Origin: Phycisphaerae bacterium | GTDB lineage: Bacteria; Planctomycetota; Phycisphaerae; Phycisphaerales; SM1A02 | Reading direction: 5' to 3' | DNA: 64,000 nucleotides | NCBI GenBank assembly: GCA_002702575.1 | Contig: PAAJ01000006.1 | Span: forward strand, 62,001-126,000 | Shown here: in pieces, positions 37,934 through 41,606 of the stretch | Layout of the letters: each line of letters opens with the position of its first letter | How positions within the stretch are numbered: position 1 is the first letter of the stretch | The notes under the pieces: generated by a model | Databases searched by the model: none | What the model saw: the letters and a program-made list of their open reading frames with translations, nothing else | What the model was told of the DNA's origin: nothing | Program-made: the position numbers and the translations under genes

Positions 37934-40636
37934 TCACAGACTGGCCTCCACTTCGGCCAGCAGATTTCCACTGGTGATGATTCCGACGATTCGCTCGGCT
38001 TCAGCAACCGCGTCTTCAAGATCCGACTCTTTCCAAGGGGCCATGGAAACACCACAGACGGTTCCATCGGGTGGAACATGGAAGTAACCAAGACCCTGGG
38101 GTGGAACCTTGATGTCGATGCTGTTGAGCAGCACTCGATACAACGGAAGTTGCAGATCCTTCCAGCCATTCCTGGTTTGATGGGTCTTGACGGGATTGTC
38201 CGGCTTGCTTCCGGTCTTGTAGTCGAGTGCCTGGTATCCAAGTTCCTCATGGAGGTCGACCCGATCGATCTTTCCGTGAAGTGGAAGACCACCTTCCAGT
38301 GGAAAGATGGGCGCATTGCCGCGACCAAAGTTGGCTTCGACAAGGGCGATCTTCCAGCCTTCTCGAGCGCGTTGCGCCTGTGCCAATGCGAGCGCTTCCA
38401 GTCGATGGGCGGCGATGGCGATCTGGACGCGAATACCAGCTGATGGATTCAGTCCAAAGCGGCTGTCCGCATGCTTCACAAGAATCGACTGCAGCGCCTG
38501 GTTGATGCTTTCAGGATCTTCCGTACGACCGGAACGTGACGCTTCCTCTTCCCCCCACCGCTCAAGAACCGTGTGGACCAATGATCCGAAACCCGCCGCA
38601 TCCATCGATTCAAGCGTTTCCACTCCGCCTGCACGGATTCGCTGATCCCGCTCCAGCAGAAAGGACAGTGGATCATCGAGGAACCGCTTGAAGGACGTCA
38701 CAGAAAGATGTTTGATCAGTGGATTGCCGCTGGGAAGTGGCTGTTCGGGGAATCCGCTCTCGATCTCACACGAGTCCTGCCAGTCCGAGAGTCGCGGCAT
38801 GCTCTCACTGACCGAGGACAGTTCACGAATTCGGAGCGCCAGTGAATCCCCACTGGTCCGAAGCAGCAGTCGACTGGGCGGAAGCGGCTCCCCCTGCATG
38901 GCATGCTGTGCCGAGACGAGCGTCGTGTTTCGTTGGCTGGAGAGAATGGCGTGAAGAAGCCATGAATCCCGTGCCAACCGTCTGCGTTCACTGTCGAGAC
39001 CAAGACATTCCCGAAGTCGGTCGGGCAACCAGGCGTCGACGGATGGTCGCGACGGTAGAATGCCTTCGTTCAATCCGGTGATGATGAGCTCGTCAGAATC
39101 ATCGAGATGGGCATCCAACCAGCCGATGATGGCGATTCCACTGCCACTGGTTCGCCAACTCGAATCGGATTGCAGGTCGTTCACAAGCAGCAGAATCAGC
39201 TCGCAGGCCGTGATCTCGGATCCTGCGCCAAGATCGAGCTGTGATTCCATCACGTCACGAACCCGGTTCAGATCTTGCCTGTCATGTTCCTCCAGAGGCG
39301 TCTCCGAAGCGCTCACCAGCGTTGCAAGAACATGCATGAGCGGTCGAACCCACTCGGAAGCTGTTCGCGGCGCACCGTGCAGCGGATCGATCAGCACGAG
39401 CAGATCACCCAGAAGCTCGGTGAACTTCACATGCGCCTTGGATCCTTCCGGAAGATCCGGAAGTGATCTTGGAAAATGGCGATTCCAGAGATCGTCCCAC
39501 GTCGCGACCGGATTTCCGATGCCCCTGCGCTGCAGGTACTGCTCCACGTCGGGATGTCGGAGCATGTCCCCGAAATGTCGGGCCGCCGCGTCCTCAAGAT
39601 GATCCCCGAGGATCTGAAGAAGGCGACAGATTCGGCCATGTCCGGCACCCCTGACGCTCATCACTGGAACCGGAACATCGAACTGCTGCAGTTCACGAAC
39701 GAGCATTCCGACGAATTCGTCATCCGGTACGACGACGGCGATCTCCTCGGCATTCAGGACATCATCCTCATCGGTCTTGTCCGCAAATCGCTCGAGAACA
39801 GCCGCCGCCTGATCATCCACTCGATCACAGCTGACCACCGTGCATTCGGACAGATCGATGGGTCGGTTCACCCACGTGTCGACATCAACGGCACCAAGAT
39901 CATCGAAGGCATCCTCGAGTTCATCGGCATCGCCATGAATGATCGTGTTCACCCTGACATCGTTTCTGTCCAGAAGATGCAGAAGACGACCGAGCAACCG
40001 AGAGGGAGAGGCTGAAACGATGGAGATCTGTTCAATGCCGTCATTCTGCACCGCCGCGGATTCGATGGCATGTCGCCTGGCGACATCGGAATCGATGCGA
40101 TTGGCTGAACGCAGGATCGACTGGACATCGGACCACAGCGTCTGAAGACCGGTCCATCGTGGAACATCGACTGGAAGATTCGACTCCAATGCGATCTTCA
40201 GAACTTCATCCGGTGTGTAGCCTCCACCACCGAGTTCCTTGAGCAGTCGCTGCAATCGACTGGCCAGAGATGTCGCTTCCCGTCTTGTCGGAGGCGTGTC
40301 ATGTCCCGTCACCGCCTTGAGGGTCGACTCGGATGCTCGATTCAAAGCTTCAAGCCAAGCCAGTTGTGAAGTGAGATCATCTGCTCGGGGGCATTCGCGA
40401 ATCAGGAATCGATCCAGCAGTCCAGAGGGTGTCGTGAGTTCAGGTGGAACAAGCATCCGATCACCGGCCTGTTCGATGAGCAGCTGCTCCAATCTGCGTC
40501 TGGCTCGACCCGTAGGCAGCACGACCATGTGCGCACTGCAGTCGAGAACATGCGAGGCGGCATGTTGCTCGAGAAGCCAGGCGGCCAATGACGGCAGCAG
40601 ATGCGTGCCGGAACCCAGAAAGACCCGATTCACCAT
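37934..40636 (-). CDS. addB: AddB-like nuclease subunit
   Basis: A 900-residue partner of AddA. The N-terminus has a nucleotide-loop-like GSGTH that is degenerate as a Walker A; the centre has the AddB/RecC-like ITGLNEGILPSRP motif, and the C-terminus carries a PD-(D/E)XK nuclease with GKIDRVDL and ALDYKTGS. The four-cysteine iron-sulfur cluster of classical Firmicute AddB is not evident. The stop overlaps the addA GTG. GGAGGG lies about 15 nt before the ATG, longer than ideal. The complex should process DNA ends for RecA. Confidence 0.78.
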   Translation of the reverse strand: MVNRVFLGSGTHLLPSLAAWLLEQHAASHVLDCSAHMVVLPTGRARRRLEQLLIEQAGDRMLVPPELTTPSGLLDRFLIRECPRADDLTSQLAWLEALNRASESTLKAVTGHDTPPTRREATSLASRLQRLLKELGGGGYTPDEVLKIALESNLPVDVPRWTGLQTLWSDVQSILRSANRIDSDVARRHAIESAAVQNDGIEQISIVSASPSRLLGRLLHLLDRNDVRVNTIIHGDADELEDAFDDLGAVDVDTWVNRPIDLSECTVVSCDRVDDQAAAVLERFADKTDEDDVLNAEEIAVVVPDDEFVGMLVRELQQFDVPVPVMSVRGAGHGRICRLLQILGDHLEDAAARHFGDMLRHPDVEQYLQRRGIGNPVATWDDLWNRHFPRSLPDLPEGSKAHVKFTELLGDLLVLIDPLHGAPRTASEWVRPLMHVLATLVSASETPLEEHDRQDLNRVRDVMESQLDLGAGSEITACELILLLVNDLQSDSSWRTSGSGIAIIGWLDAHLDDSDELIITGLNEGILPSRPSVDAWLPDRLRECLGLDSERRRLARDSWLLHAILSSQRNTTLVSAQHAMQGEPLPPSRLLLRTSGDSLALRIRELSSVSESMPRLSDWQDSCEIESGFPEQPLPSGNPLIKHLSVTSFKRFLDDPLSFLLERDQRIRAGGVETLESMDAAGFGSLVHTVLERWGEEEASRSGRTEDPESINQALQSILVKHADSRFGLNPSAGIRVQIAIAAHRLEALALAQAQRAREGWKIALVEANFGRGNAPIFPLEGGLPLHGKIDRVDLHEELGYQALDYKTGSKPDNPVKTHQTRNGWKDLQLPLYRVLLNSIDIKVPPQGLGYFHVPPDGTVCGVSMAPWKESDLEDAVAEAERIVGIITSGNLLAEVEASL

Positions 40637-40749: not shown

Positions 40750-40973
40750 ATGCAGGTTTCTCGCAGGAGTCTGCAATCAGGGCCCTGCTGCGGCGTTCTA
40801 CAGGTGCGACACCCATGGGACGTCTCATCGCAGTTGATCCTGCGGTCCCGGGGTGTGGAGGGGCACGATCCCGGACGGAAAGCGAGAACCCCCGGGAGAC
40901 CTAAAGACAACCCATCTATACCCTCTCCTCGCAGCCCGGCGGAACTCAAGAGGTTCCGTCGGGCTTTTCTTGT
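40750..40973 (+). ncRNA. Candidate structured small RNA
   Basis: Plus-strand elements in order: TGCAG/CTGCA arms (40751-40755, 40771-40775); the palindrome CAGGGCCCTG (40778-40787); a long irregular hairpin pairing ACACCC-GGGAC-CGCAG (809-833 within 40 kb) with CTGCG-GTCCC-GGGTGT (840-856), broken on the 5' side by a 7-nt bulge; a stem TCCCGG/CCGGGA (40869-40874, 40892-40897); and a terminator. No gene follows on the plus strand, so this is not a leader of a CDS. Not recognisable as SRP, RNase P or tmRNA; a 6S-like RNA cannot be excluded. The 5' end and promoter are uncertain. Confidence 0.45.
40934..40968 (+). terminator. Intrinsic terminator
   Basis: A 12-bp GC-rich stem (GCCCGGCGGAAC with GTTCCGTCGGGC, one G-U pair) with a 7-nt loop is followed by TTTTCTT. 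The U-tract is on the plus strand only; in the minus direction the stem is followed by TGCGAGG. It therefore ends plus-strand transcription and is not the terminator of the convergent PRT gene. Confidence 0.85.
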
Positions 40974-40976
40974 CCT

Positions 40977-41606
40977 TCAGGACTTGGTTGAACTGAGGAA
41001 CTGGGCACCGTGGGCGTATCGCGTGTTGACCGGGACACCTTGTGCACAGAGTTCACAGTTTTCAGCGGGCCAGGATGGCAGAGAGACTTCATCCAGGAAG
41101 ATGAATTCATCCACACCAAGCGCCGAAGCCCCGATGTTGCCTCTGTTGATCCATGTCGCGGCAGCCACGACATCACCACCGGCAGCCCGCACGGTATCCA
41201 TGGCCAGCTTGATCGAGTAACCGGTATTCACCACATCATCGACCACCAGAACTCGACGGCCATGCACGAACTCATCCTGTCCGCGGCGAAGGGTGAATCG
41301 TTCCTGTCCATCGACGGTGATCCGTTCGGCATAGACACAACTGCAGGACAAGGCCAACGCCGTGAACTGGGCGCAGATCAGACCGCCCACGGCGGGACCA
41401 CATACGACATCGAAGGAAAGATCGCCCACGGCTTCGGCAAGCAGCTCCCCCAGTCGACGAGGAAGGCGTGGGTCCAGATTGATGATGTCCTTGGCGATCC
41501 ATCCGTTGCCATGATCGCCCGAGGCATAGACGAAGTGATCATCTTCGATCAATGCACCACAGGCTTCGATGATCGCCCGGGTTTCCGCCTGTCTTGGATT
41601 CGACAT
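40977..41606 (-). CDS. Orotate-phosphoribosyltransferase-like protein
   Basis: A 209-residue type I phosphoribosyltransferase. The PRPP motif VLVVDDVVNTGYS and CGPAVGGLICAQ are clear. The C-terminal extension contains a C-x2-C pair (ENCELC) and PVNTRYAHG, features of a PRT group distinct from the housekeeping PyrE at 23065-23592. Substrate is uncertain: orotate or another base. It follows ccsA after 18 bp on the same strand. Confidence 0.8.
   Translation of the reverse strand: MSNPRQAETRAIIEACGALIEDDHFVYASGDHGNGWIAKDIINLDPRLPRRLGELLAEAVGDLSFDVVCGPAVGGLICAQFTALALSCSCVYAERITVDGQERFTLRRGQDEFVHGRRVLVVDDVVNTGYSIKLAMDTVRAAGGDVVAAATWINRGNIGASALGVDEFIFLDEVSLPSWPAENCELCAQGVPVNTRYAHGAQFLSSTKS

What the first reader, a model, noticed from the sequence alone, without database searches (positions are those of the whole stretch)
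40750..40973. Candidate unclassified small RNA with own terminator
Several stable hairpins in a row, including a 16-bp irregular stem with a 7-nt bulge, end in an intrinsic terminator with a plus-strand U-tract, and no plus-strand gene follows. The structure does not match SRP, RNase P or tmRNA by eye. Could be 6S-like or lineage-specific.
Basis: seen in the sequence. Interest (0 to 1): 0.65.

Follow-up and report, generated by a model that had tools for sequence, protein, structure and literature searches.

The report
Conserved small RNA gene, marine Phycisphaerales
This stretch is very probably a genuine, previously uncatalogued small RNA gene with its own stop signal, shared by two genera of uncultured Phycisphaerales bacteria; its fold is clear but what it controls is not yet known.

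Summary
Window 40750-40973 (+) lies between the convergent gene pyrE and an AddB-like gene and ends in a 14-bp intrinsic terminator with a plus-strand U-tract. No Rfam family reaches threshold, and no relevant weak hit appears. Homologues occur in 4 of the 5 other genomes of the genus and in 2 genomes of a second genus of the same family. The seven copies share a three-way-junction fold, with 10 pairs changed on both sides within the genus and 17 over both genera; slid structures give 0-2 and 0-5. The 7-nt bulge GUCUCAU is invariant in all seven. The RNA stays near pyrE although the other flanking gene differs and one genus has an extra gene in between, so it is an independent gene. No reading frame is conserved. 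It was found nowhere else in 181 family genomes or a 397-genome class sample. A standard 6S RNA (own genome) and Hfq (0 of 6 genomes) were not detected. Best reading: a lineage-specific regulatory sRNA, probably base-pairing in trans without Hfq through invariant exposed segments. No target is shown.

The parts
40750..40970 (+). sRNA gene, approximate extent; 5' end not mapped (A/T-rich tract TTTGTAAAAAAATG just upstream; GCAAT box inside)
   Evidence: sequence
40773..40777 (+). GCAAT box, found 15-16 nt upstream of the GCGTT/CCGTT anchor in all 7 homologues while the bases between vary
   Evidence: spacing read by eye
40793..40968 (+). conserved core of the RNA (aligned in 5 genus members)
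40806..40808 (+). P1 5' strand, pairs with 40930-40932; closes the three-way junction; changed to CAG/CUG in G012
40809..40814 (+). P2 outer stem 5' strand (ACACCC), pairs with 40851-40856
40818..40821 (+). P2 middle stem 5' strand, pairs with 40845-40848
40822..40828 (+). 7-nt bulge GUCUCAU, invariant in all 7 homologues
40829..40844 (+). P2 apical hairpin (5 pairs); longer in genus g8; covaries
40857..40863 (+). P3 5' strand GGAGGGG, pairs with 40920-40926 (40863 faces A40920, unpaired, in this genome only among the five g1 copies)
40869..40897 (+). P4 hairpin; stem sequence diverges but pairing is kept; loop holds invariant GCGAG (40882-40886)
40908..40917 (+). C/A-rich segment CAACCCAUCU, predicted unpaired; AACCCAUC invariant in all 7 homologues
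40920..40932 (+). P3 3' strand (CCCUCU) followed by CCUCGC (P1 3' strand at 40930-40932)
40933..40970 (+). intrinsic terminator, 14-bp stem and U-tract
   Evidence: conserved in 5 of 5 genus members; GCCCGACGGAGC...GCUCCGUCGGGC also follows the RNA in both g8 genomes
40977..41606 (-). pyrE (phosphoribosyltransferase), convergent neighbour; directly next to the RNA in g1, one gene away in g8
37934..40636 (-). AddB-like PD-(D/E)XK nuclease gene on the other side; beside the RNA in genus g1 only

Best explanation
SHOWN: a conserved structured element on the plus strand, about 180-220 nt, single copy, ending in its own intrinsic terminator, inherited at the pyrE locus in two genera of one Phycisphaerales family, with no conserved reading frame. 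INFERRED: it is an independently transcribed regulatory sRNA. A three-way junction (P1; P2 with the 7-nt bulge; P3 with hairpin P4) next to the terminator holds out invariant unpaired segments (GUCUCAU, AACCCAUC, loop GCGAG). The likeliest use of these is as seeds that pair in trans with mRNAs. GUCUCAU and AACCCAU both end in CAU, the complement of an AUG start codon, and the second runs on into a Shine-Dalgarno complement (CUCCCCUCUCC); the natural reading is that partial pairing near start sites blocks translation. Because no Hfq was found, the RNA's own fold and terminator would have to provide its stability, or another protein does. That it is a real RNA gene: about 0.95. That it acts by trans base-pairing: about 0.5.
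For: RNA gene: terminator and geometry; homologues in 4 of 5 other genus members and in 2 genomes of genus g8 (E 0.005 and 0.006 with model R1, built without them); covariation 10 pairs against 0-2 in slid controls on a MAFFT alignment, 17 against 0-5 on the model-fitted 7-sequence alignment; plus strand favoured over minus (z -7.2 vs -4.7; G-U pairs occur on the plus reading); pyrE/ccs synteny in 6 of 6 homologous loci examined besides the window while the other neighbours change; no conserved frame. Trans-acting: no plus-strand gene follows in genus g1; invariant segments lie in predicted loops.
Against: No expression data and no mapped 5' end; the promoter scan found no sigma-70-type site. 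No mRNA target was found: the full 20-nt anti-RBS complement allowing 3 mismatches gives, outside the RNA gene itself, one site in one of 6 genus genomes. Invariant segments could equally be protein- or ligand-binding sites, and the lack of Hfq (0 of 6 genomes) removes the best-known helper of trans-pairing sRNAs. The longest invariant C-rich stretch is partly paired in P3, so it would have to open. One genus genome, G004, lacks a convincing copy.
Confidence: 0.55

Rival explanations
1. Protein-binding or polymerase-binding RNA: the rigid junction and invariant loops bind a protein (6S-like regulator, sponge or RNP scaffold) rather than mRNAs.
For: Very high conservation of fold and loops relative to the upstream flank; no standard 6S detected in this genome; no Hfq; no mRNA target found.
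Against: No match to 6S; three-way junction rather than a rod; found in two genera only, unlike housekeeping RNPs.
Confidence: 0.3
2. Cis-acting leader (riboswitch or attenuator) whose downstream gene was lost in genus g1. In g8 the RNA and terminator lie about 100 nt upstream of a co-directional gene for a predicted secreted protein.
For: g8 geometry: RNA, terminator, then a gene with a signal-peptide-like start and a dockerin-like end (by eye).
Against: In all 5 g1 copies no plus-strand gene follows, yet RNA and terminator are kept; no segment complementary to the terminator's 5' arm, hence no evident antiterminator (by eye); no riboswitch family matches.
Confidence: 0.1
3. Minus-strand element: 3' UTR of pyrE or 5' leader of the addB-like gene.
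For: pyrE and addB are co-directional on the minus strand in g1; the minus strand also folds better than shuffles (z -4.7).
Against: U-tract only on the plus strand; plus-strand fold clearly better; G-U variants would be C-A mismatches on the minus strand; in g8 neither gene adjoins the RNA.
Confidence: 0.04

Closest known systems
Intergenic trans-acting bacterial sRNAs with intrinsic terminators
   Same: free-standing intergenic gene, 180-220 nt, intrinsic terminator, exposed conserved segments, narrow lineage
   Different: no Hfq detected; no target known; more structured than typical seed-carrying sRNAs (recalled)
6S RNA (RF00013)
   Same: size range; own gene; structured
   Different: no CM match; three-way junction with terminator instead of a rod with a central bubble; two genera only
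C-rich, anti-Shine-Dalgarno sRNAs (recalled: CCUCCUCCC-motif and UCCC-motif sRNAs)
   Same: invariant pyrimidine-rich stretch complementary to SD-like sequence
   Different: much of the stretch is paired in P3; homology not tested beyond Rfam; target interaction untested
Transcription-attenuation riboswitches
   Same: compact junction fold directly followed by a terminator
   Different: no downstream gene in genus g1; no evident antiterminator; no family match

Membership tests
6S RNA | match to the RF00013 covariance model | tested here: not met
   this locus; 0 matches in own genome; controls ring in 5 of 14
6S RNA | rod with closing stem, central open bubble and apical stem | tested here: not met
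   consensus and single folds show a branched core plus terminator
6S RNA | binding of RNA polymerase and product-RNA synthesis | not testable with these tools
   needs biochemistry
Independent intergenic sRNA gene | own terminator, noncoding, not tied to one downstream gene | tested here: met
Independent intergenic sRNA gene | expressed as a discrete transcript | not testable with these tools
   no RNA-seq available
Structured RNA family | compensatory changes supporting one fold | tested here: met
   10 pairs in 5 sequences; 17 in 7 sequences on a model-fitted alignment
Hfq-dependent sRNA | host encodes Hfq | tested here: not met
   PF17209: 0 of 6 genus genomes; controls ring in 5 of 14
Riboswitch / attenuator | lies in the 5' leader of a gene in all members | tested here: not met
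   no plus-strand gene follows in g1
SRP RNA, RNase P RNA, tmRNA | match to the Rfam models | tested here: not met
   no hit to these up to E 10 for this locus or six homologues; canonical copies elsewhere in the genome were not searched

The most novel reading that the evidence does not exclude
A new class of Hfq-independent translational regulator in planctomycetes: a rigid three-way junction that presents two anti-start-codon loops (GUCUCAU, AACCCAU) and a hidden Shine-Dalgarno complement. The terminal CCUCGC could pair either in P1 or with the GCGAG loop of P4, so a conformational switch might expose the anti-SD strand.
Probability: 0.1. Interest if true: 0.72.

Novelty: new member of a known kind. 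Interest (0 to 1): 0.42.

Why it matters
Little seems to be in print on regulatory RNA in Phycisphaerae: four library searches (listings only were seen) showed no report of a characterised sRNA from this class. A conserved, covariation-supported RNA with a usable covariance model is a concrete entry point, and the lack of detectable Hfq makes its mode of action a testable question.

Tried and rejected
metK link: G011 holds an exact 21-nt match to GGGTGTGGAGGGGCACGATCC just upstream of metK, antisense to it, which suggested a target. The metK leaders of the four sRNA-bearing g1 genomes with a metK hit (G000, G002, G003, G005) and of G012 lack it (read by eye), G011 has no RNA homologue, and the match lies beside a metK palindrome; left as coincidence or unresolved.

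Anti-RBS target search: outside the RNA gene only one 3-mismatch site, in one of 6 genomes.

Pseudoknot GCGAG-CUCGC: both sides are invariant in g1, so covariation says nothing, and it is broken in G012, where P1 is kept by paired changes (alignment fitted to the model). P1 is therefore preferred.

Weak model hits in G034, G033, G076, a second G003 site, G030, G078 and G004 were examined by model alignment and, for G034, G033, G076 and G004, by gene context. They lie inside or overlap genes or keep only fragments of the motif, and I dropped them; G034 is the least clear.

Pattern scan of GTDB genomes: 69 stretches, of which 5 are strong by model R2, all Phycisphaerales already seen (contig lengths equal); the other 64 are at or below 21.5 bits. 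Viral contigs, with another pattern: 0. Plasmids and phages: none.

Caveats on absence: the wide searches used strict filters and scored only 8-21 candidates per genome, so diverged copies can be missed.

Full report
The window is part of an uncultured Phycisphaerales genome (3.17 Mb in 32 contigs). The candidate lies in the 340-bp gap between an AddB-like nuclease gene (37934-40636, minus; PF12705) and pyrE (40977-41606, minus; PF00156), with a cytochrome c assembly gene (ccs) upstream of pyrE on the same strand. The names AddB and PyrE are mine from domain and sequence; Pfam gives the domains.

Observation. The plus strand carries a 14-bp terminator at 40933-40965 followed by TTTTC, preceded by several stems. 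The MFE is better than all 200 shuffles (z -2.8). The stem with the 7-nt bulge is at 40809-40856. No plus-strand gene follows.

Known families. The whole window gives only a tRNA at Rfam's gathering scores. The locus itself gives no plausible hit up to E 10. The six homologous loci give only scattered sub-threshold hits that are not shared between homologues.

Homologues. blastn finds copies in G001, G002, G003 and G005, 4 of the 5 other genomes of the genus (the fifth, G004, is a 180-contig assembly at 95% completeness). A covariance model built from these five sequences then finds two genomes of another genus of the family, G012 and G102, at E 0.006 and 0.005 (151 genomes). Alignment shows the same blocks in them: GGGACGUCUCAUCGAU...AUCGGUCCC, GAGGGG, GCGAGAG, AACCCAUCU and CCUCUCC, then the same terminator stem. 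A refined model, which includes these two, finds convincingly the same 7 genomes in the 181 of the family searched (four further genomes gave weak matches that I dropped) and only family members among 397 genomes sampled from the class (3 with a match, all among the 7). These wide searches use strict filters.

Structure. On a sequence-only alignment of five copies, 97.7% of cells pair, and 10 of 44 pairs have changes on both sides. Shuffles average 3.0 and slid structures give 0-2. On the seven-copy alignment, which was fitted to the model and so leans towards it, the figures are 17 of 33 pairs against 0-5 for slid versions. The fold is a three-way junction: short P1, P2 with the invariant 7-nt bulge GUCUCAU, and P3 capped by P4, followed directly by the terminator. 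P4 changes sequence almost completely yet keeps a stem around GCGAG. The consensus energy favours the plus strand. Single-sequence z-scores are -2.8, -2.0, -4.2, -4.2 and -5.5 in the five copies folded (the other two copies were not folded singly).

Independence. In all six homologous loci examined the RNA faces the ccs-pyrE pair convergently, as in the window. In genus g1 the other neighbour is addB. In g8 it is a hydroxyacid dehydrogenase gene, and one gene for a predicted secreted protein stands between RNA and pyrE. In G009, pyrE is present without the RNA. The RNA core is as conserved as pyrE coding DNA, while the sequence upstream of it is not conserved. No frame on either strand stays open and conserved in all seven, and lengths differ by non-multiples of three. 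It is therefore best read as an RNA gene and not a leader, UTR or reading frame.

Function. Hfq was not found in 6 of 6 genus genomes; a standard 6S was not found in the own genome. Much of what does not vary is predicted unpaired, the usual mark of interaction sites. Two of these segments, GUCUCAU and AACCCAU, end in the complement of AUG, and the second continues into a Shine-Dalgarno complement; this makes translational repression by base pairing the most economical guess. No target supports it yet, and an apparent metK link did not hold up in the genomes that carry the RNA. Protein binding is the main rival.

Upstream, all seven copies carry GCAAT 15-16 nt before the (G/C)CGTT anchor although the bases between vary. 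This may be a promoter or RNA element; the 5' end is unmapped.

Literature. Four searches of the paper library were read as listings only; no paper was opened. They showed no described sRNA family of Phycisphaerae.

Noticed in passing
L117, L121, L122 (metK loci of G011, G014, G038), upstream of metK: A palindrome of the form TTCATCCG-N(4-6)-CGGATGAA recurs upstream of metK in several Phycisphaerae, perhaps a regulator's operator; absent by eye from the g1 metK leaders.
   Followed up: partly
G011:C31:61831-61851 (L007 1501-1521): Exact 21-nt copy of the sRNA segment GGGTGTGGAGGGGCACGATCC just upstream of metK in a genome with no detectable sRNA.
   Followed up: partly
window 40773-40797 and the six homologues: GCAAT and (G/C)CGTT at a fixed spacing of 15-16 nt in all seven copies, with variable sequence between.
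   Followed up: no
G000:C22:26757-27950 and G000:C29:7957-9150: Two metK hits of identical score in the window's genome, perhaps an assembly redundancy (contamination estimate 8.2).
   Followed up: no
window 40977-41606: This pyrE type gives strong matches in only 7 of 41 genomes (genera g1, g5, g8), a patchy distribution that overlaps that of the RNA.
   Followed up: no
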